The notes beneath the pieces are model-generated. The model was not told the DNA's origin, did not search any database, and saw nothing but the letters and a program-made list of their open reading frames with translations. Shown here in pieces: positions 1 to 59,427 of a stretch of 64,000 nt of DNA. The translations under genes and the position numbers were made by a program. Each line of letters starts with the position of its first letter. Position 1 is the first letter of the stretch. Origin of the DNA: Betaproteobacteria bacterium (GTDB lineage: Bacteria; Pseudomonadota; Gammaproteobacteria; Burkholderiales; SG8-39); the NCBI GenBank assembly GCA_009693235.1, contig SHXR01000002.1, forward strand, positions 1 through 64,000, read 5' to 3'.

Positions 1-30
1 GATCTTGGACTCGTTCATGTCGATCACCAT
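1..30 (-). mobile_element. Start of a probable IS transposase/integrase gene, cut by the window edge
   Basis: The minus strand reads M-V-I-D-M-N-E-S-K-I and runs off the left edge. From memory, this opening resembles integrase-core (IS481/ISNCY-like) transposases, which often begin with MNES or MNDS followed by a helical region. The second ATG (position 18) has AAGGA about 10 bases upstream, so it may be the true start. Only ten codons are visible, so the identity is an inference. The 18-bp direct repeats at 87-140 lie just upstream and could be subterminal transposase sites. Confidence 0.3.
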
Positions 31-86
31 CCTTCGATGATCGACTCCCCGCCCCCTCTACGCGCCCCACTCGCCAGCGCCCTTCA

Positions 87-140
87 GGATCAAACCTCGT
101 TGGAATCACGGCCTTCGGTTCGGGATCAAACCTCGTTGGA
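87..140. repeat. Two 18-bp direct repeats, 36 bp apart
   Basis: GGATCAAACCTCGTTGGA occurs exactly at 87-104 and again at 123-140, a start-to-start distance of 36 bp. The spacer is unrelated sequence. They lie upstream of the possible transposase start at the window edge. Two copies are too few and too short for a CRISPR array. They may be binding sites at the end of an insertion sequence. Confidence 0.6.
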
Positions 141-247
141 CAAGACTTAAGGTGTCGCTCTGAACCAACCTAGGCTAGCATTGCTAGGTGCGGTGCGGAA
201 ATGTTCTGCCGCGAGTCGGGCTTTAACCACCAAGACCTGGGGATGCG

Positions 248-6182: not shown

Positions 6183-6376
6183 TGCGATTCAGACATCCGC
6201 CGTGGTCGACCGATACATTCCCTTACATCTTTATGAGCGATCGACAAACGTTGGCAATGTTGGACAGTTATTCTCGCTCCGCCTGCATTGCATCTTAAGC
6301 ATAATGACTGAACGCGCGTTATCGTCGTAGCGGCTCCTGACAGGGTCCGCGCTGCTAGTTCTCCGGAGAATTCATT

Positions 6377-6790
6377 ATGCGATCGAAAGTTTTCATTGCC
6401 TTGACCCTGCTTGGACTGTCGCTTGGGCTTGCCAGTCAAGACACCGCCGCGCAGGGGCACCGCGGCCGTGTTGGGGTAGGCGTTCACATTGGCGTGCCCG
6501 GACCGTTTTACTGGGGCCCGCGTTATTACTACGGCGGGCCGGGCTACTACTATCCGCCGTATTACTACAGCGCGCCAATCGTGGTGGAATCCCCGCCTGT
6601 CTATGTCGAGCGCGGTACCACCGATCCTCAGGCACCTGCCGCGCAGCCGGCCCAGCCAGTCGGTGATTGGTACTTCTGCTCGTCTCCTGAGGGCTATTAC
6701 CCTTATGTGTCGCAGTGCCCGGGCGGATGGCGCAGGGTCCCGGCTTCGCCACCGGCTCCGCCGGCCCCGTCTGCGAGCACACCTCAGTAA
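6377..6790 (+). CDS. Secreted Tyr/Gly/Pro-rich protein
   Basis: 137 aa. The signal peptide ends near AAQ (residue 26). A low-complexity section (about residues 40-75) is full of YYY, GGPGYYY and PPYYY. The C-terminal half has the conserved small domain WYFCSS...GYYPYVSQCPGGW with two cysteines, then a Pro/Ala tail. Such exported proteins are common in Burkholderiales; they are probably envelope-associated but have no known function. GGAG precedes the start. A glycine-zipper lipoprotein follows 17 bp later. Confidence 0.82.
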   Translation: MRSKVFIALTLLGLSLGLASQDTAAQGHRGRVGVGVHIGVPGPFYWGPRYYYGGPGYYYPPYYYSAPIVVESPPVYVERGTTDPQAPAAQPAQPVGDWYFCSSPEGYYPYVSQCPGGWRRVPASPPAPPAPSASTPQ

Positions 6791-6807
6791 AGGACTTGAA
6801 ATTCTTC

Positions 6808-7344
6808 ATGCTTAAGCGCCTATCTCTGCTGGTCGTCATCGGCTTGGTGGGGTGCGTCACTGCCCCCATCGGCCTCCGCGTTACAACGCTGCCTGGCAGC
6901 GGGAAGAGTTTCGAGCAGTTTCGCGCCGACGAAGGCAGCTGCCGCAATTTCGCCTCAGACAGCATCGGCGGTCAGGCATCAACGCAAGCTGCCAATGAAA
7001 ACATTGCAGGATCTGCGGTGCTTGGGACCGCCATCGGTGCGGTGGCCGGTGTGGCGCTTGGCGGACATCAAGGCGCGGCTGTTGGTGCCGGTGTTGGCCT
7101 GTTTGCCGGCAGTGCCATCGGCGCGGACCATGCGCAGGCGTCTGTCTATGATGCGCAGCGCCGATATGATCAGGCGTACGTTCAATGTATGTATGCAAAA
7201 GGGCACCGTGTCCCGGTGCGGGCCCGCTGTGTACGGAGTCGCGATCCTGCGTGCGATCGGCCACGGCCCGCGGCATCGTATCCGCCTCCGCCGCCACCCC
7301 CGGGTTACCCGCCACCACCGCCGCTCGCTTCGCCCAGCGGATAG
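6808..7344 (+). CDS. Glycine-zipper lipoprotein
   Basis: 178 aa from ATG 6808. A lipoprotein signal (MLKRLSLLVVIGLVGC) has the lipobox LVGC with Cys16. The middle (about residues 65-110) is a glycine-zipper hairpin: two hydrophobic halves with GxxxG spacing (GTAIGAVAGVALGG, GAGVGLFAGSAIG). A Cys-containing region and a proline-rich tail follow. Related proteins sit in the outer membrane and influence envelope stability. Likely co-transcribed with the upstream secreted protein. Confidence 0.8.
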   Translation: MLKRLSLLVVIGLVGCVTAPIGLRVTTLPGSGKSFEQFRADEGSCRNFASDSIGGQASTQAANENIAGSAVLGTAIGAVAGVALGGHQGAAVGAGVGLFAGSAIGADHAQASVYDAQRRYDQAYVQCMYAKGHRVPVRARCVRSRDPACDRPRPAASYPPPPPPPGYPPPPPLASPSG

Positions 7345-7378
7345 CCGCCAAGCCACCGCTGCTTGTGATGCGGTCGGG

Positions 7379-9525
7379 CTAGGCCGGCTGCATCCAACCG
7401 ATCACTTTGCTCCGCAAGCGCCACTTCAAGCGGTCCCACCAGTTTGGGTTTTGTACGATCTCGGCGCGGAAAAACGACGGGCAGAGAATCGCCGCATGCG
7501 CGACCTCACCACATAACCCACAGCCGACGCAGCTGTTGTTCACATGCACCACCGGATCGACCTTGAGCAGATCGCCGGAATCCTTCACTGTGAGGGAAGG
7601 ACATCCGGACAAGCGAATACACGAACGATCGCCCGAGCACACATCTTCATCGACCCCAAAGCGGGTGCGCACGACCCGATCACCGGATGACAAGAGCTTT
7701 GACAAGATCGGGCGAATCCGGCGCTGCCGTTCGAGCTGGCATTCGCCTTCGGCGATGATCACCTTCAATCCGGATTCGGTGGTCGTGAACGCCTCGCGCA
7801 AGGTCTTGGCCATGTCGCCGACCCGGTACGTATGCACGGTGCGCAGCCACTTCACCCCAACGCCACGCAAGGTGTTTTCGATCGTTTGATCCGCATGGGC
7901 TGCGCTGTTCTCGCGGGCCGTCACGCGCGCGGATTCAATCGGCGTGGAAATCAATTCCTGCGTACCGGTGGCCGATGAGTAGCCGTTCTTCATGACGATC
8001 AGCACCGAATCGCCCTTGTTGAGCACGGTCGATGACACGCCGGACAACAAGCCGTTGTGCCAGAAGCCGCCATCGCCCATGATCGACAGCGTGCGGCCGG
8101 ATTGAATCGGTGCGACACCGGCGGCACTGGCAAGACTCATCCCGTAACCAAGGATCGAGTTGCCGGATGAAAAGGGCTCGAAGGTCGCCAGTGCATGACA
8201 ACCGATGTCAGCGGCGGTATGGGGTTTGCCAACATCGCGCTCGGCCAGTTTCAGCGCGGCGAACACCGGGCGTTCCGGGCAGCCCACGCAAAACGTCGGT
8301 GGTCGCGGCGGGATCGGCGCGCCGAGTGCGGTATTGGCACGCTGCCTGAGGTTATCCATGCCCGCGATCCAAGCGAGGCCCACCTTGATGTCAAGGCCAC
8401 TGCCATCCTGTGCGATGAATAACGCCAGGCCGCGTCCGATCGCCTCGGCATTGTATTCACCGGCCATCGTGATGCAGTCCTTGCCGCGGAGCTTGGTCTG
8501 CACATCGGCGCGGCGCAGGAGGGTCGATATTTCCTGCTCGATGAATTCCGGTTGACCCTCTTCGACCACCAGCACCGCCGATTTGGTTGTACAGAATCCG
8601 GTGATCTCGTCGGGAACCAATGGATAGACCGCGTTCAACACGAGAATCGGCATGCGTGATGCATCGAAGGCGTCGGCCAAACCGAACTGTTCGAGTGCGC
8701 GGAGCAGATTGTTGGCGAGCCCGCCTTGGACGATGATGCCAAGATGCGTGAGCTCGCCAGGTAGGGTCTCGTTGAGTCGGCGCTCGCTGATGAACTTGCG
8801 GGCCGCTGGAATCCGCACATCGAACTTCAATTTTTCTTGCCGAAAGGTCGCGGGTGGATGCGCGAGCCGGTCGTAATAGAACGTTGGCGGCCCCTCCAAT
8901 CGATGCAGCGTTGAGATGGCAGGCGCCTTGTTTGACTTTGCTTCGAAGCTGCCTTGCACATGGCATGCGCGAATTCTGAGTTCCATCATAACCGGCGTGT
9001 TGGAGGCCTCCGACAGTGCAAAGCCTTCTTCCACCATGCGCACGATCGTGGGCAGATTCGGTCGCGGATCGAGCAGACACATCGATGACTTGAGCGCCAT
9101 CGCATGCGAGCGTTCCTGGATGACGCTCGCGCCTTCGCCGTAATCTTCGCCAAGGATGATCATCGCGCCGCCCACCACACCGGCCGAAGCGAGATTCGAT
9201 AGTGCATCAGCAGCAACGTTGGTGCCGACGATCGACTTCCAGGTGACCGCACCGCGCACCGGATAGTTGATCGATGCGCCCAACATGGCGGCGGCCGAGG
9301 CCTCATTGGTGCAGGCTTCTACGTGAACACCGAGCTGATCAAGATAATCGCGCGCCTGCACCATGACATCGAGCAGATGCGAAACGGGCGCGCCTTGATA
9401 GCCACCGACATAGGCAACGCCTGATTGCAACAGCGCTTTCGTTACGGCAAGGATGCCTTCGCCGTGAAACGTCGCCCATCGGCGAGTTGCAGCGATTTTA
9501 TTTCTTCAGCGAAAGAGCGTTCCAT
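7379..9525 (-). pseudogene. Indolepyruvate ferredoxin oxidoreductase alpha-type, frameshifted copy
   Basis: Second alpha-type gene of the cluster, third in transcription order. It oxidises 2-oxo acids such as indolepyruvate with TPP and Fe-S centres. From ATG 9525 the protein starts MERSFAEEIKSLQLAD, matching the paralogue at 11138-13264, but runs into TAA 27 codons on. One base lost around 9468-9476 explains this; downstream the frame is open for 683 codons with CVGCPERPVF, the TPP motif GDGGFWHNG and the C-terminal CVGCGLCG cluster. An internal TTG at 9430 would omit about 30 N-terminal residues. The C-terminal DNA looks roughly 80% identical to the paralogue (eye estimate). Confidence 0.8.
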
Positions 9526-20092: not shown

Positions 20093-23000
20093 CTAGGAAA
20101 GGGTTCTCAGCTCACGCAGCGCGACCGATAACATCGTGGCATCCGGCGATGACACGGTCCGCAGTTCCTCGATGACTCTCGTCGCGCGCTCAACCGCAGC
20201 ACGATTGCTGTCCATCCATCGCGCGCAAAGGGTGCCCGCGTCATCGTTGTCGCGGAACGACGACAGCAAGCACATGGTGAGTCCGCTCTGCACATTCCCC
20301 AAGTCATCGCGCAGGGCGTTCTTCGCTTGCAAGGGCCAATGTCCGTCGGCCGGAAGCTGCATGATGCGATCGGCAAACCAACCAAGGCCTAGCCACCCCA
20401 TCAGCTGAAAATGCACCTGGGCGACCAATGTAAGCGAGCGTTTCGTAGCGTCCGCTACCTCGATTAGAGAGAGCGCCGAGCCAAGATCCTGGAACGACGC
20501 CACCCGGGTCGCTAGTTCGAGCGGAATGCCGACAGCGGTGAATCGGCTGATCATTGCGCCGCGACGAGCAAGTGACGTGGCATCGAGGAGTCGTGGCAGT
20601 TCCGACTCCAGAAGACTCGCACCGGCACGGAACTTTTCAATCGTGGTTCCCATGTCGTCTTGCAGACGCTTGGAGCGCAGGAACCATGATGTTGCCGGTG
20701 GTTTCGATTGCGCTTCGAGCAACAGCTCGGCGAGGACATGGCAAGACCTAACAGAACCTTGATGTTGACTTCGTGATCGGATGTTTCGACGCCACCGGAA
20801 TTTTCAATAGCGTCGGTGTTGATGCGCCCACCCGTGCCACCGGCGCCCGCGAGCGCAAATTCAATGCGGCCCCGTTGCGTAAAGCCAAGATTGCCGCCTT
20901 CGACGACGATCTTGCAGCGCAGATCCCTGCCGTTCACCCGCACCGGATCGTTGGTGCGGTCGCCCGCATCGACGTGGGTTTCGGTGCTGGCCTTCACGAA
21001 TGTGCCGATGCCGCCGTTGTAGAGGAGATCGACCGGGGCAACGAGAATCGCGCTGACCAATTCGGCTGGCGTCATGCTGGATTGTTGAAGACCCAGCGCG
21101 CGTTGCATTTGCTCGCTGATCGGGATCGACTTGGCGCTGCGCGGCCAGACGCCGCCACCCGCTGAAATGACCTTCGCATCGTAGTCGACCCATGACGAGC
21201 GCGGCAGATGAAACATGCGTTCCCGCTCGAGAAAGCTCGCTTCCGCATCGGGATCGGGATCGACGAAGATATGGCGATGATCGAATGCCGCAATGAGCTT
21301 CATCGTTCTGGCCAGCAACGTCCCGTTGCCGAATACATCGCCGGACATGTCGCCGACGCCCACCGCGGTAAACGATTCATTACGAATATCGCGACCGAGT
21401 TCGCGAAAATGCCGTTTGGTCGATTCCCACGCCCCACGCGCAGTGATAGCCATGGCCTTGTGGTCGTAACCGGCCGACCCACCCGAGGCGAACGCATCGC
21501 CCAGCCAGAATCCATATTCCTTCGAGATGGCGTTGGCATAATCGGAGAACGTTGCCGTTCCCTTATCGGCCGCCACCACCAGATAAGGATCATCGCTATC
21601 AAGGCGGCGCACATCGACTGGCGGCACGATCTTGCCTTCCTTCAGCAGCTCCTCGCGTTCGGTGCTTGCTCGTTTGAGGACAAATCCCCCCTTCGAGCCG
21701 ACCGGTACGATGACGGTGTTCTTCACCATCTGCGCTTTTACCAAACCCAACACCTCGGTTCGGTAATCCTCCGGCCGATCTGACCAACGTAGGCCGCCAC
21801 GGGTGACCTTGCCGCCGCGCAGGTGGACGCCTTCGAAGCGCGGCGAGTACACGAAGATCTCGAACATCGGGCGCGGCTCGGGCACACCCGGCATGCGCGC
21901 AGGGTCGAATTTGAATGACAGAAATTCCTTGTGCGTACCGCCGGCATTGCGAACGAAGAAATTGGTGCGGGTGGTGGCGAGAATGGCGGCGAGAAACTGT
22001 CTGAGGACGCGGTCCTCGCTCAAGTTGCTGATGCGACCCAGCTCCGCTTCGAGCCCCTTCTCGATCTTCAAGGCGAGAGAATCATCATCGCGTTTGGGAT
22101 CGAGACGCTGCTTGAACAAATGCACCAGCAGGCGCGCAATGGAGGGATGACTGGTGAGCGTGTTCTCGATGAAGGATTGCGACAGCGGAAAGCCGATTTG
22201 ACGAAAGTAACGACCGTAGGCGCGGAGCACGACGATGTCTTCGGCCGGCAGACGCGCGGCGGTGACCAAGCGATTGAACGGATCGCTTTCGATGGCGCTT
22301 GTGATGATGTCGGCAAACGCTTTCTCAAAGATCGGACGTAACTCGTCGACATCGACATTGGCCGCGGTGGTGATGGCAAGGCCGATATCGACCAGCCAGA
22401 TGGCCGGGACGCCAACTGGGGTAACGCGACTCGGACGTTCATCCAGCACCCGCAAGCCCATTTGCTCGAGCATCGGCAGCACATCAGACAGCACGATCGG
22501 TGCGCCTTTCACCACCAGTTTGAAGCGCAGTTGACCTGGTGCGGCTTCGATCTGGCGATACAGCAACGTGCTTGGCACATCGGTCGCCAGCGTCTTCACG
22601 AACATCTCGATGTCTGCCACTGCGTTGCGCGGGGTGAAGTCCTCTCGATAGCCGGCCGGAAACGCGTCGCCAAACTGGAGATAGAGCTCGGTGCCGCGCG
22701 CCTCGCCGAGCCGCTCGATCAACGCGGCCTGGAGGTTGTCCTCCCAGCGCCGCGCTGCCAGCGCCAAGCGTGTTTCGAGCTCGCGCGTGTCAAAGGACGG
22801 GATTTCTCCGGGCGCGGTGTAAATCATGAAGAGCACCTGTGCCAGGGGCGAGGCGGTAACGCTGACATCAAATTCGGAGGCATGTCCGCATAGTGCATCG
22901 ACGGGGATCGCTTGCCATTTACGGCGCAGATCGGTCGTGTACTGCTCGCGCGGGGCGAACACCAGGCAAGTGACAAACCGATCGTAGGTATCGCGTCGCG

Positions 23001-24240
23001 TGAACAAGCGAAAGCGCTGCCGCTCGCCAAGTTGCAGGATGCCAAGGGCAATCGGCAGCAGTTCCTTCTCGCTGATCTGGAACAGTTCGTCGCGCGGATA
23101 GTTGTTGAGAATATGGGCAAGCGACTTGCTGGCATGGGAGGCTGGCGGCAGACCCGCCGCGCTGATGATGTTGGCCACCTTCTGTTTGAGGATCGGAATG
23201 TCAGATAGTGTCGTGCTGTAGGCCGACGATGTGAACAGGCCGATGAAGCGATGCTCGCCGCAGACCTCGCCCGCCGCATCAAAGCGCTTGATGCCCACGT
23301 AGTCGAAGTGACCGGGCCGATGCACGGTTGATCGAAAATTTGATTTTGTGATGACCACCAGCACCCGTGTTCTGGCGTGGCGTTGCAGGTTCGCGGGCAG
23401 ACGTGTGGTGCTGGCGGTCTGCCGGTCCTCCCCGGTAGTCCGCAATACGCCGAGGCCGCTCCCCGGGATGACGCGCAACGAATCCATCCCATCGTGGGTT
23501 TCCACGTCGTGGCAGCGATACCCAGTGAAGGTGAAATGGTCATGCAGCAGCCATTCGAGAAACGCTTTTCCGGCGGCGACCTCTGCGGGTGGGACCGGCA
23601 GCGATGATCGTTCGATCTCGTCGATCACTTCGCGCGCCTTAGCGAGCATGTTCTGTCAATCCTCGACGGCGGCGCGCGTATCGGCGAGGACCCGTGCAAT
23701 GCCCTCATGCAATGATCGCAGCCGCGCATTGTCATGGATCCGGTCGATTTGCGGATGGATTCACGACTCGCGCGGATCGTGGTCCGCGTCGCCCGGAAAT
23801 TGGATGAGTTTGCCGTCTGCATTGCGCTTGAGCGAGAGAATCGGATGCGCTATCAAATGCGACATCAGCCCGTGGCGGTTTACTTCCATCGTCACGGCGT
23901 CCACCAGGAAAGGCATATCGTCGTTGACGATCTCGATTACGGTATGCGTCGACTGCCAGCCGTGTTCTTCGATCGTTGGATTACGAATGCGGATGCTGGC
24001 TACGCCCGGACGGCGCGTACGTGCGAAGGCCCAATGAGAAAGAGCGGCGCCGTACAGATCGAGGGCCCGGTAGCGGGCAAGATCTTCCTGATCCAACCCA
24101 CCGAAATATTCACTCATGAACAGTTCGATGACCGGTCGTTCCGCGGGGGCAACCCGGGTGGAAACCAGCTCGATCACATCCACCAACGCGGGGGGAGTGG
24201 GGCGGTCCGTACGCTTTAGCATGGAGCACTCATCAGGCAT
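20093..24240 (-). pseudogene. Large NAD-glutamate dehydrogenase with two in-frame UGA codons and an internal gap
   Basis: The 180-kDa type (usually about 1600 aa) oxidises glutamate to 2-oxoglutarate. The N-terminal part (24240-23764) and the middle (23655-20744) share one frame, separated by TGA at 23763-23761 and 23658-23656; both replace residues expected to be Trp (RES-x-IHPQIDRI and AVED-x-QNMLAKA). The catalytic region is intact with VGSKGGFVLKRA, GDMSGDVFGNG and GGRINTDAIENSGG. After DHEVNIKVLLGLA the frame breaks near 20728-20741 and resumes at LLLEAQSKPPATSWFLR, which in homologues lies some 200 residues later. The C-terminal 200 residues are present. Total span 1382 codons. Not expected to be functional as read. 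Confidence 0.8.
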
Positions 24241-25375: not shown

Positions 25376-25422
25376 CGATCGACGATAATCGGCTTTCATT
25401 TCCGTCGGACGTGAGCGCGCAC

Positions 25423-25560
25423 ATGCAGATCGGTGTTTTGGGACTTGGCATCATGAGCGGGGCGATGTCGGCCAACGTGGTGAAGGTGGGCTTCTCCGTT
25501 ACCGGTTTCGATCCTTCGCCATCAGCGGTGGCTGCCTTTGTCGCGCCCGGTCGGCGGGCC
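25423..25560 (+). pseudogene. N-terminal remnant of a 3-hydroxyisobutyrate dehydrogenase-like gene
   Basis: MQIGVLGLGIMSGAMSAN followed by GFSVTGFDPS is the NAD-binding start of 6-phosphogluconate/3-hydroxyisobutyrate dehydrogenases (normally GLGxMGxxMAxNL). Homology fades after about 45 residues, so roughly 250 residues are missing. The frame stays open and in phase into the downstream Bug gene at 25618, so a fused product is possible but would bury that signal peptide. Best read as a deletion remnant. Confidence 0.6.
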
Positions 25561-25617
25561 GCGATCAGCGCGCGAAGTGGCGGCTGCTGCTGGGATCGAC
25601 TTCAATCGGAGCCCCCG

Positions 25618-26586
25618 ATGCGACGCATCGTCACTGCCATGTTGGTCAGCGCCATTGCGGTTATCGCCACGGGGCTAGTGCAGGCGCAGGGCTATCCGTC
25701 GAAACCGGTTCGCTTCGTTATTCCGTTTCCGCCCGGTGGCGGCACCGACATTCTTGGTCGTGCGCTGGCACCCAAGGTCTCAGGAGGTCTTGGCCAGCAG
25801 CTGGTAGTTGAGAATCGCGGTGGGGCGGGTGGCAATATCGGCTCCGAATACGTCGCGAAGGCGGCACCCGATGGCTATACCTTGCTGCTTGGCGCAAATA
25901 CGCTGGCGATCAACGCAACGCTGTATCAGAAACTTGGCTTCGATCCGATTAAAGACTTCGCGGCAGTAACGATGCTGGCGTTGGGGCCGATGGTGCTGGT
26001 CGCGCATCCGTCGGTGCCGGCGAAAAGCGTGCGGGAGTTGGTTGCGCTGGCCAAACGCGATGCCTCGAATCTCAATTTCAGCTCGCCCGGCAACGGTACG
26101 CCGCATCATATCGCCGGCGAGTTGTTCAATCGGATGGCGGGTGTGTCGATCACCCATATTCCCTACAAGGGTGGCGGTCCGGCGCTGGCTGATGTGTTGG
26201 CCGGGCAGACGCAGCTTTCCATGCTCACAATGGGCACCGTGAAGCCGCACATTGAGGCGGGTAAATTGATGGCGCTTGGCATGGCGTCGGCACACCGCTC
26301 GCAAGTGGCACCCGATGTGCCGACGATCAGCGAATCCGGTGTGCCAGGTTACGCAGCCGAGCTATGGTATGGCGTGTTTGCACCGAAGGGAACGCCGCCC
26401 GGCGTCATCCGCAGACTGCATGCCGAATTCAATAAGGCGATTGCGGCACCGGAGGTGAAAGACCGCGTTCTTGGGCAAGGGTTCGAGATTTGGACCTCGA
26501 CACCTGAGGAACTGGACCGCATCCTCGCGACCGATTTCGAAAAGTATGCCCGCGTCATTCGCGACGGCAACATTCGCGCTGAATGA
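25618..26586 (+). CDS. Bug/TctC-family solute-binding protein
   Basis: 322 aa from ATG 25618, preceded by CGGAG; the frame extends upstream through a dehydrogenase remnant, but the signal peptide (MRRIVTAMLVSAIAVIATG, cleavage near AQA) fixes this start. Family motifs are GYPSKPVRFVIPFPPGGGTD, HIPYKGGGPALADVL and APDVPTISESGVPGY. A periplasmic binder for an unknown organic acid, without TctA/TctB nearby. Seven bases separate it from the Sua5-like gene. Confidence 0.92.
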   Translation: MRRIVTAMLVSAIAVIATGLVQAQGYPSKPVRFVIPFPPGGGTDILGRALAPKVSGGLGQQLVVENRGGAGGNIGSEYVAKAAPDGYTLLLGANTLAINATLYQKLGFDPIKDFAAVTMLALGPMVLVAHPSVPAKSVRELVALAKRDASNLNFSSPGNGTPHHIAGELFNRMAGVSITHIPYKGGGPALADVLAGQTQLSMLTMGTVKPHIEAGKLMALGMASAHRSQVAPDVPTISESGVPGYAAELWYGVFAPKGTPPGVIRRLHAEFNKAIAAPEVKDRVLGQGFEIWTSTPEELDRILATDFEKYARVIRDGNIRAE

Positions 26587-51999: not shown

Positions 52000-52886
52000 A
52001 TGCATCGAAACGCTTGGCGCGCGATCCGCGACGCCGCCCGCCATTGGGCCGTTCGATTCGCACATTGCCTGTTGGTCGGTGTTTTTTGCGCCTGGCCTGT
52101 TATGTACGCCGGTGCGCAGACGGTCCATCTTGCCGGCTCCGGCGCGGCCCTTGGGACCATGAGCGCTTGGACGACGTCTATCGCAAGGTTGACCCGACAT
52201 TCTCGTTGGTCGTCATTCCGAATTTCGGCTCGGAAGGAGCGTTACGTGCGCTGCGGGCGAAAGCCATCGACATCGCGGCGGTCGATCGACCCTTAACCGA
52301 TGAGGAAAAATAGATTGGCCTGCAGGCGATCGAATATGGCCGCACACCATTCGTTCTGATCACCAATCGTTTCGACATCTTCAGTATTTCCTCCGCAGAG
52401 GCGAGCGCCATCATCAGCGGCAAAGTCGTCGCGTGGCCCGATGGCGCGCCCATTCGTTTGGTGCTGCGCCCCAAACGCGACCGCGATACCGCGCTGTTGG
52501 CGTCGTTCTCACCGGCAATGAGCGATGCCCTGCAGCGCGCCTACGCACGTCCCGGAATGATGATCGTGACGACCGATCAGGAAAGTGCCACCGAAATCGA
52601 GCATCGGTCCGGCAGCTTCGGTACCACGACGCTCGCCCTCATTCTTTCCGAGCATCGCAACTTGCAACCGCTCGCGATCGATGGGGTCGCCCCGACGGTC
52701 AAGGAGCTGGCCAGAGGTCGGTATCCCTATTCGAAGACCATGTATCTCGTTATGTCGAAGGATTCGACGGCGAATGCGCGGCGGTTCGCGACTTTCATTC
52801 AATCGGCACGGGCCGGCACGACCCTTACCAACACCGGACATTGGATCGTCAAGAAGCAGCCGCATGCTGACCGTGCGAGCCGATAG
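52000..52886 (+). pseudogene. PstS-like periplasmic binding protein, frameshift and in-frame stop
   Basis: From ATG 52000 the signal peptide (LLVGVFCAWPVMYAGAQ) leads into VHLAGSGAALGTM; one G lost at 52160-52162 shifts the frame. The next frame continues LDDVYRKVDPTFSLVVIPNFGSEG, then TAG at 52311-52313, then the same frame runs to 52886 with EYGRTPFVLITNRFD and [13 protein letters not shown]. Repaired length 295 aa fits a phosphate-type binding domain. The next gene, a hybrid sensor kinase, starts four bases after the stop, so this was probably its extracellular sensor partner. Confidence 0.75.
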
Positions 52887-52890
52887 GAAC

Positions 52891-55081
52891 ATGGAGCGCA
52901 TGCTCGGTCGCATTGCGGCCATTGTCGCGTTGGTCGTTGCCGTTGGCGGACCATCGACGTATTTCGCGCTTGGGTTTCAGTTTGAATCGGGGATTCTCAG
53001 CACTGAGGCGCAGGTCAATAGCGGCCTGGTGACGCAACTGGTTCACAAGAATCCGGAGCGATGGCAATTCGAGCACAATCGACTGCTCCATCTGCTTGAC
53101 CGTCGCTCGGTCGAGCGGACGCCGGAAAGTCACGTGATCATTGATGCGAACGATAATGAAATCATCGCCAGTCGCGATCCGCTGCCGCCGCCGCACCTCA
53201 CCGAACGCGCCCCCGTCATGGACGCAGGGCAGCAGGTTGCGACGTTTGAGATCACCCGATCCCTTCGCCCCCTCATTCTTGAAACCGCCGGCGCCGCCTT
53301 GATCGCCGCGTTGCTGGGGCTGATTGTCTACGCGACCCTTACGTTACTGCCGCTACGGGTCTTGCGGCGGGCATTGCAGGACTTGGTCGAAGAACGGGAG
53401 CGCTCCAAGGCGATTAATCGCGACAAAGACGTCGCCGAGGCGGCTACGCGGGCGAAGTCGCAGTTTCTCGCCACCATGAGTCATGAAATTCGCACGCCGA
53501 TGAACGGCATTCTTGGCATGACCGAGCTCATTCTCGATACCGATCTAAATCGGACCCAGCGTCAGTTTGCGCAGGCGGTGCAGAAATCGGCGAGAATCTT
53601 CTCAACATCATCAACGATGTTTTGGATTTGTCCAAGGTCGAGGCCGGCAAACTGGAACTCGATGCGTCCGAGTTCAATGCGCGCGAGCTGTTCGAAGACG
53701 CGGTGGTACTGGTTGCCCAAAGGGCCCATGGGAAAGGGGTCGAGATCACCTGCAACATCGGCGCCGGCGTACCGGAAGCACTGGCTGGGGACGCGCATCG
53801 ATTGCGGCAAGTGATCACCAACCTGGTTGGCAATGCGGTTAAATTTACCGATGCCGGCAGCGTTGATCTCGAGGCCGATATCGTTGTGGAGACGGGCGAT
53901 GCGGCCGAGTCGCCCACCTGTACCGTGGCGTTGCGATTACCGATACCGGGATCGGCATGTCGCCCAGCGCGCTGGCGCACGTTTTCGATCCCTTTGTGCA
54001 GGCCGAGAGTTCGACTACCCGGCGATTCGGCGGAACGGGGCTCGGTCTTGCCATCTGCAAGCAGTTGGTTGAAGCCATGGGTGGCACAATCGATGTCAAA
54101 AGTGAATCAGGCGTCGGGTCTACTTTTTCGTTTGCCATCACACTTGGCCGCGGGCGACGCCAGCCTCCCGCGGTGCATCCCGAGTCGCTGACCGGCTTGA
54201 ACGTGCTCGTGGTTGAAAGTGATACGACCAATCGGCAAATTCTTGGACGACACCTCGACTATCTCGGCATTCGCTATGCGACAGCGGCAAACGGCGAGGA
54301 CGCGCTCGCGCAATGCCGTGCGGCAAGCGCTGCCAAGAAACCGTTTGACCTGGCGATCGTCGACATGAAATTGCCTGCGACTGACGACGCGGGCGTGCTG
54401 CGCACACTCGATGCGGACCCGTTGAGTGCCAATTTACCCATCGTGATGCTCACCGCGTCAACCATGCAGGCCGATAGCCAAGCCCAACGACGGTCGGGTA
54501 GTAGTGTGTCCTTGAGTAAGCCGGTACGTCGGGAGGAACTCTTTCGCGCCATTGCCGAGCTGATGGGTGGTACGGCAGAGGTATTGCGCCCAGCGCCCGC
54601 GAAAACCAACGACCAGGCTGCTGTGCCGTGGGAACGAGGAACCCGGCGCATCCTCGTTGCCGAGGACAATCCGGTTAATCAGGTGCTGGCGCGCACTATG
54701 CTCGGGCAACTCGGCCTCGATGTCACCATGGCCCACGATGGGAACGTGGCCGTCAAGGCCTACGGCGAGGGCGTGTTTGATTTGATCCTCATGGACTGCC
54801 AAATGCCTGAAATGGATGGCTTTGCCGCATCCATGGCGATTCGACAGCATGAGCAAGCCGCGAACATGCCGCGCGTCCCGATCATTGCTTTGACGGCGAA
54901 TGCCATGCAGGGCGACCGTGAACGCTGTTTGGCGTCCGGTATGGACGACTACCTGACCAAGCCATTCAACAAGGCCGCGCTCCGCAATGTGATTGCCAAA
55001 TGGCTTGATGCCGGGCATGCCAAACGCGCGGGTAACGCTAAAGACGACACCGTCGCGGCCGCATCGCCGGTTACGAAGTAG
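52891..55081 (+). pseudogene. Hybrid sensor histidine kinase with two receiver domains, two frameshifts
   Basis: Start ATG 52891 after TAGGAAC. TM1 (about residues 5-25), ~100-residue periplasmic loop, TM2 (about 130-150), dimerisation His198 in [14 protein letters not shown]. One base lost near 53587-53593 ([22 protein letters not shown] region) and one near 53932-53938 (before DTGIGMS). The ATPase domain has [11 protein letters not shown] and [10 protein letters not shown]; two receivers follow with Asp in LAIVDMKLP and LILMDCQMPEMDG. Span is 731 codons after repair. Not expected to work as read. Confidence 0.78.
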
Positions 55082-58141: not shown

Positions 58142-58255
58142 GACGCCTTGATATCGAGGAGAGTCGGTCTGACAATACACTGCGGGACGAATCGCACCGA
58201 TGTGCGTGATCAGTGCAGCGCGCGGATCGCAAAGGCAAAGGGGACGCTTATCCCG

Positions 58256-59427
58256 ATGGAACCTACGCCAGCTACTTTCAACTTACCTATCACGCCCTTC
58301 GGTATGCTTGCGAATTCCGTGCCGCGGACGACCGCCCCTTACGCGACGGCGAATCGACCTGCGGATTCTAGCGCTAATCTCATCCTCCCCGGGCAGCGAA
58401 TGGACGCGGACAGCGGTGTGCTAAGCGATGTGCTCCCTGATTTTCGCAATTCGGGAGTGATCGGCAGGATTGTCCTGCTGGTCAATGTGGCGATGCTCTT
58501 CGCCGTCGCGGTGTCCAGTCAAAGCGACGCGGAGTTCGTGCCCCTCGTCCTTTCCAAAGCCGCGATTGTCGAGCCGATCCTGTTCGCAAGTCTTGTCGCG
58601 CTCTACATCGGTCATCCCAAACTCGGGCCGTTCCGCTATGAGTTTGCGGTGGTGCTGATCACCTTGTTTGTGATGCTGGTCACCGCGTTCATCTACGGTC
58701 TCGTATCGACCTTCGATGCGAGCGCCACACGGTTTGGATTTGCCAGAGCGCTGGCGTTGGCCGCGTTCGGCGTGCTCTTCATGCTTGAGTACTTTTGCAT
58801 GCGTAGCCGGGCGCTCGCGCCGGGGATGGTGGCGGCGCGTTTGCAGGCGTTGCAGGCGCGCATTCGCCCGCACTTTCTGTTCAATTCCATCAATGCGGTG
58901 CTGTCGTTGATCCGGACCGACCCACGCCGCGCCGAAACGGTCATCGAGGATTTGGCCGATCTGTTCCGCACGCTGATGGCCGATGCCCGTCAACTTGTTA
59001 CACTTGAAGATGAGATTCGCCTGGTTCGCGGTTATCTCGATATCGAGCAGCTGCGTCTGAGTGAGCGGCTCGCCGTACACTGGAGCATCGAAGGCGCCCC
59101 GAAACACGTGCTGGTGCCTCCATTGTTTTGCAGCCCTTGGTGGAGAACGCCGTTTATCACGAGGTTGAACCGGGCAAGGGCCCGGGAATCATTGATATCG
59201 ATATCGTGCGACGTGACGATCGCCTGGCGATGCGCCTGGCGAACCCCTATCACTCCAAGCATCAACACCGTCAGGGCAATCGCATTGCCCTTACCAACAT
59301 CAAAGAGAGATTGGCATTGCACTTTGACGCGGAAGCCACGCTCACCAGTGGCGCAATCGGCGACCGCTACGAAATCCATGTCGATCTGCCCTATCGAAGT
59401 TCCGCCAAGGAAGGCAAAGAAGGATGA
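58256..59427 (+). pseudogene. algZ: AlgZ-like (LytS-type) sensor histidine kinase, one frameshift
   Basis: Start ATG 58256. Four hydrophobic segments (about residues 70-180), then the His_kinase domain with His206 in RIRPHFLFNSINAV. After VPPL one G is missing in the TTGTTTT at 59123-59129; repair gives LVLQPLVENAVYHEVEPG and a full ATPase domain (390 aa). As read, translation leaves the frame and the ATP-binding part is lost. The stop overlaps algR (ATGA). The lesion could be sequencing error, since algR looks intact. Confidence 0.8.

What the first reader, a model, noticed from the sequence alone, without database searches (positions are those of the whole stretch)
23656..23763. Two UGA codons in frame at predicted tryptophan positions of glutamate dehydrogenase
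The frame is continuous across both UGA codons (33 codons apart), and the flanks match large NAD-glutamate dehydrogenases; each UGA sits where homologues, as I recall, have Trp (before IHPQIDRI and after AVED). Many neighbouring genes end with UGA, so genome-wide recoding is excluded. Two G-to-A changes in the same gene are either decay, assembly error or a real readthrough.
Basis: partly seen in the sequence, partly recalled or inferred. Interest (0 to 1): 0.6.

Follow-up and report, generated by a model that had tools for sequence, protein, structure and literature searches.

The report
Recently broken glutamate dehydrogenase pseudogene
A large glutamate dehydrogenase gene in an uncultured Burkholderiales-type bacterium carries two premature stop codons, but also two deletions, one of which destroys the reading frame, so it is most likely an ordinary, recently inactivated gene rather than a case of stop-codon recoding.

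Summary
In detail: the minus-strand gene for the large (180-kDa-type) NAD-glutamate dehydrogenase has in-frame TGA at 23761-23763 (codon 160) and 23656-23658 (codon 195), with homologous frame on both sides. The only congener held (87% protein identity) has TGG at both. Reading UGA as Trp cannot restore this gene. The congener's copy is broken independently (17-nt frame-breaking deletion, then a multi-copy repeat at a contig end), and most genera of the family lack the gene. dN/dS is still 0.09, like intact neighbours, so loss is very recent. TGA is the commonest stop here; selC and selB exist, but neither site has Cys-bearing homologues or an unusual downstream hairpin. Verdict: a young pseudogene; consensus or assembly error cannot be excluded without reads. 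Readthrough is very unlikely.

The parts
20093..24219 (-). Pseudogene of a large NAD-dependent glutamate dehydrogenase (L-GDH180 type; PF05088 catalytic core, PF21074 C-terminal domain)
   Evidence: PF05088 528 and 209.6 bits on C73; PF21074 168.4 bits on the detached 3' piece; 87% identity to the congener
23761..23763 (-). In-frame TGA 1 (codon 160); TGG in congener, mostly Phe elsewhere
23656..23658 (-). In-frame TGA 2 (codon 195); Trp in 83 of 85 distinct relatives
21634..21639 (-). Junction of a 63-nt in-frame deletion (21 residues of the catalytic core missing between LLKEG and KIVPP)
   Evidence: DNA alignment with congener; PF05088 matches only profile positions 2-143 and 161-469; each of 86 relatives has 16-23 residues here
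20826..20850 (-). Five-residue in-frame insertion (GAGGT) not seen in nine intact relatives
   Evidence: alignment
20722..20746 (-). Junction of a frame-breaking deletion of about 0.62-0.63 kb (about 209 residues of the C-terminal domain missing)
   Evidence: relatives have about 678 nt between points that are about 50 nt apart here; alignment; PF21074 positions 1-141 found nowhere in the assembly
20093..20722 (-). Detached 3' piece of the gene (C-terminal 209 codons), in another frame, with no stop before its natural end
25411..26586 (+). Neighbouring lesion: first ~55 codons of a 3-hydroxyisobutyrate/threonate-dehydrogenase-like gene fused to an unrelated TctC receptor gene; the congener has the 293-aa dehydrogenase whole
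   Evidence: Pfam; congener ORF L172:14959-15840; NCBIfam

Best explanation
The gene is a recently inactivated copy (pseudogene) of the large NAD-glutamate dehydrogenase. The two TGA codons are ordinary nonsense changes from TGG. Ribosomes would stop at codon 160; even a cell that read through both TGAs would make an enzyme lacking 21 conserved residues of its catalytic core and, after the second deletion, its proper C-terminal domain. The gene appears dispensable in this genus: the congener has lost it by different lesions. Shown: all lesions in the assembled sequence, their absence from intact relatives, the congener's different lesions, low dN/dS. Inferred: that the assembled lesions are in the living genome, that no active enzyme is made, and that loss is neutral or favoured.
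For: Two TGAs plus a 63-nt and a ~0.62-kb frame-breaking deletion in one gene. Missing C-terminal part not found elsewhere in the assembly, no second copy of the core. The congener copy is broken differently: a 17-nt frame-breaking deletion and, after codon ~1040, junction with a repeat present at 35 places, nearly always at contig ends. None of the other distinct relatives has a stop in the aligned part. Only 6 of 23 other genera of the family gave any match, several of them intact. Most other genes compared with the congener in the window and sampled contigs are open, so lesions are concentrated.
Against: dN/dS against the congener is 0.091, within the 0-0.14 of neighbours, and only 2 changes occur at 185 near-invariant positions, as in intact genes. 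Neutral decay should bring about 21-24 missense changes per nonsense change, so four or more severe lesions with so few missense changes is a tension: chance, selection for loss, or some lesions are errors. No reads were available.
Confidence: 0.84

Rival explanations
1. Assembly or consensus error: the cell has an intact gene, and the assembly shows false stops and deletions, for instance from thin coverage or mixed strains.
For: Low dN/dS and no excess of missense changes. The genome is 79% complete in 106 contigs and only 23 tRNA genes were found. Other genes in the assembly carry single-base frameshifts, some in short homopolymers (hybrid histidine kinase near 53590 and 53940, histidine kinase near 59115, a glutamate-synthase-like gene on C19).
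Against: It would need two independent substitution errors and two large clean deletions in one gene while most compared genes are open. The junction of the 63-nt deletion has no long repeat that would confuse an assembler. The missing C-terminal part is on no other contig. The congener's independent lesions point to real loss in the genus.
Confidence: 0.12
2. Programmed or near-cognate UGA readthrough with Trp: the gene is still expressed at low level through both UGAs.
For: Both UGAs replace TGG of the congener; purifying selection downstream is visible (dN/dS 0.08-0.10 after the stops), the kind of argument used for readthrough in PMC7918605. Bacterial tRNA-Trp variants that read UGA exist (PMC13092985).
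Against: A frame-breaking deletion and a catalytic-core deletion lie downstream. The stops are shared with no relative. Under simple mutation models 5-14% of random nonsense changes in this gene are TGG to TGA. dN/dS is a pairwise average over a long history and does not show selection after the stops arose. tRNA-Trp could not be found in the assembly, so its shape was not tested.
Confidence: 0.02
3. Selenocysteine insertion at the UGAs.
For: The genome has a tRNA-Sec gene (67.5 bits) and selB (365 bits, over the equivalog cut-off) on C17.
Against: No relative has Cys at either site; the 74 nt from each UGA fold no better than shuffles (z 0.13 and 0.28); and the gene is broken downstream.
Confidence: 0.01

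Closest known systems
Bacterial pseudogenes with nonsense and deletion lesions
   Same: Several independent inactivating changes in one gene, intact orthologues in relatives, patchy retention in the family
   Different: Missense changes have hardly accumulated, so the loss is very young or some lesions are errors
Large NAD-glutamate dehydrogenases, L-GDH180 (PF05088/PF21074; structure in PMC8175468)
   Same: Homologous along the N-terminal, catalytic and C-terminal regions
   Different: Two stops, 21 catalytic-core residues and about 209 C-terminal residues missing, frame broken
In-frame stops with retained low dN/dS in bacterial genes (PMC7918605)
   Same: In-frame stops in a gene with low pairwise dN/dS
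   Different: That work relies on stops shared by orthologues; here no relative shares them and frame-breaking deletions are also present
UGA read as Trp by unusual tRNA-Trp (PMC13092985)
   Same: UGA at positions that carry UGG in the congener
   Different: TGA ends 19 of 34 window genes; single gene; tRNA-Trp not available to test

Membership tests
Pseudogene | Inactivating lesions absent from intact orthologues | tested here: met
   Two TGAs, 63-nt deletion, ~0.62-kb frame-breaking deletion; distinct relatives intact over the aligned part apart from the congener
Pseudogene | Lesions present in the living genome rather than only in the assembly | not testable with these tools
   No reads available
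Pseudogene | Relaxed selection (raised dN/dS); expected of old pseudogenes, not required of very young ones | tested here: not met
   dN/dS 0.091; 2 changes at 185 near-invariant sites; compatible only with very recent inactivation
L-GDH180 glutamate dehydrogenase (functional) | Complete catalytic core and C-terminal domain in one frame | tested here: not met
   PF05088 positions 144-160 and PF21074 positions 1-141 missing; frame broken
UGA-to-Trp recoding or readthrough | Frame otherwise open to its natural end | tested here: not met
   Frame lost at about 20735
UGA-to-Trp recoding or readthrough | UGA rare or absent as terminator (for reassignment) | tested here: not met
   19 of 34 window genes end in TGA
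UGA-to-Trp recoding or readthrough | Suppressor or 4-bp-anticodon-stem tRNA-Trp | tested here: inconclusive
   No tRNA-Trp of any kind among the tRNAs found; no UCA tRNA except tRNA-Sec; assembly incomplete
Selenoprotein | Sec machinery in the genome | tested here: met
   selC and selB on C17; selA and selD not tested
Selenoprotein | Cys/Sec at the position in homologues and SECIS hairpin after UGA | tested here: not met
   No Cys at either site; fold z 0.13 and 0.28

The most novel reading that the evidence does not exclude
The glutamate dehydrogenase is being lost repeatedly and under positive selection for loss in this genus, so that severe lesions pile up faster than missense changes in two species independently.
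Probability: 0.1. Interest if true: 0.25.

Novelty: new member of a known kind. Interest (0 to 1): 0.1.

Why it matters
It matters little by itself: it shows that in-frame UGAs at Trp positions in one gene should not be read as recoding before the rest of the frame is checked. If the lesions are real, the genus offers a small example of parallel, very recent loss of a catabolic glutamate dehydrogenase.

Tried and rejected
Genome-wide UGA reassignment: rejected, TGA is the commonest stop. Selenocysteine: machinery present, but no Cys homologues and no hairpin signal. A second intact dehydrogenase: no other large-type core; no small-type match over its cut-off (PF00208 best 20.1 bits, cut-off 23.4). 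Missing parts on another contig: not found for the C-terminal domain. Stops or missing block shared with relatives: none. Plasmid collection by nucleotide: only short Azospirillum matches. The congener's 3' end of the gene was not found in its assembly, so the large deletion could not be compared at DNA level with a close relative.

Full report
What was claimed.

Observation. The gene lies on the minus strand. Reading from 24240 downwards gives 1165 codons in one frame with TGA at codon 160 (23761-23763) and codon 195 (23656-23658). The start is probably the MLKR methionine near 24222, since the congener has a stop just before it. Both flanks match large NAD-glutamate dehydrogenases; the core scores 528 and 209.6 bits with PF05088. 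The congener (G001, the only other genome of the genus held) is 87% identical and has TGG at both sites. Among 86 distinct relatives, site 2 is Trp in 83 of the 85 aligned there. Site 1 is Phe 31, Val 15, Ile 13, Leu 10, Trp 7, others 9.

The gene has more damage. (1) A 63-nt in-frame deletion at about 21636 removes 21 residues of the catalytic core; all 86 relatives have 16-23 residues there. (2) A deletion of about 0.62-0.63 kb at about 20735 removes some 209 residues and shifts the frame; the last 209 codons continue in another frame to their natural stop. The missing part of PF21074 (positions 1-141) is nowhere else in the assembly. (3) A five-residue insertion near 20840 is not in nine intact relatives. 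Reading UGA as any amino acid therefore does not give a working gene.

Congener and family. The congener's copy is broken too, but differently: 17 nt are missing near codon 735, which breaks the frame, and after about codon 1040 the sequence runs into a 144-nt tail found at 35 places in that genome, nearly all at contig ends, as a mobile or otherwise repeated element would be. In the family, only 6 of 23 other genera searched gave a match, several of them intact. The gene is thus dispensable in this lineage; how it is gained or lost across the family was not worked out.

Age. Pairwise dN/dS with the congener is 0.091 overall and 0.077-0.127 by segment, within the range of 28 neighbours (0-0.14). 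At 185 near-invariant positions the window copy has 2 changes and the congener 1, against a mean of 1.1 in the others. Both copies were thus under selection until very recently. Under neutral decay about 21-24 missense changes are expected per nonsense change. Two nonsense changes and two deletions with so few missense changes is a mild conflict, left open: chance, selection for loss, or errors in the assembly.

Is it error? Of about 60 genes compared with the congener in the window and in 20 sampled stretches, most are open; stops near the beginnings are probably start-site differences. Other breaks in this assembly are single-base frameshifts: two in a hybrid histidine kinase gene (near 53590 and 53940), one in a histidine kinase gene (near 59115), and one in a glutamate-synthase-like gene on C19. 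These could be sequencing errors or decay. Large deletions are harder to explain as sequencing errors. Close to the gene, a dehydrogenase gene that is whole in the congener is cut after about 55 codons and fused to a TctC receptor gene. Without reads the question cannot be closed.

Readthrough and selenocysteine. TGA ends 19 of 34 window genes. The genome has selC and selB, but no relative has Cys at these sites and the RNA after each UGA folds like shuffled sequence. No tRNA-Trp was found in the incomplete assembly, so the 4-bp-anticodon-stem mechanism of PMC13092985 could not be tested. Belinky and others (PMC7918605) argue that in-frame stops with low dN/dS can be functional, but they rely on stops shared by orthologues, which is not so here. 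Under simple mutation models 5-14% of random nonsense changes in this gene are TGG to TGA, so two such changes are unremarkable enough to need no special cause.

Verdict. An ordinary, very young pseudogene is by far the best reading, with assembly error second and recoding remote.

Noticed in passing
window 52585-55081: Hybrid histidine kinase gene with two single-base frameshifts relative to the congener (near 53590 and 53940).
   Followed up: partly
window 58211-59424: Sensor histidine kinase (PF06580) with a one-base deletion in a run of T near 59115 relative to the congener.
   Followed up: partly
window 25411-26586: Truncated 3-hydroxyisobutyrate/threonate-dehydrogenase-like gene fused in frame to a TctC solute receptor; the congener has the dehydrogenase whole.
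   Followed up: partly
L262:1279-2992 (G000 C19): FMN-binding glutamate-synthase-like gene split by a frameshift at a run of seven G.
   Followed up: partly
L269:4552-4643 and 6367-8355 (G000 C17): selC and selB lie near each other, so the organism probably makes selenoproteins; selA and selD not looked for.
   Followed up: partly
L023:4687-4830 (G001 C47 end): 144-nt sequence found at 35 places in the congener, nearly always at contig ends: probably the end of a multi-copy mobile element; one 74% match in G000 at the start of C3.
   Followed up: partly
window 1-148: First 148 bases recur (91-95%) on three contigs of the congener, a repeated element at the contig end.
   Followed up: no
whole genome G000: Only 23 tRNA genes passed the search of the 3.9-Mb assembly and no tRNA-Trp; the Tyr-Gly-Thr tRNA cluster sits at the end of contig C40.
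   Followed up: partly
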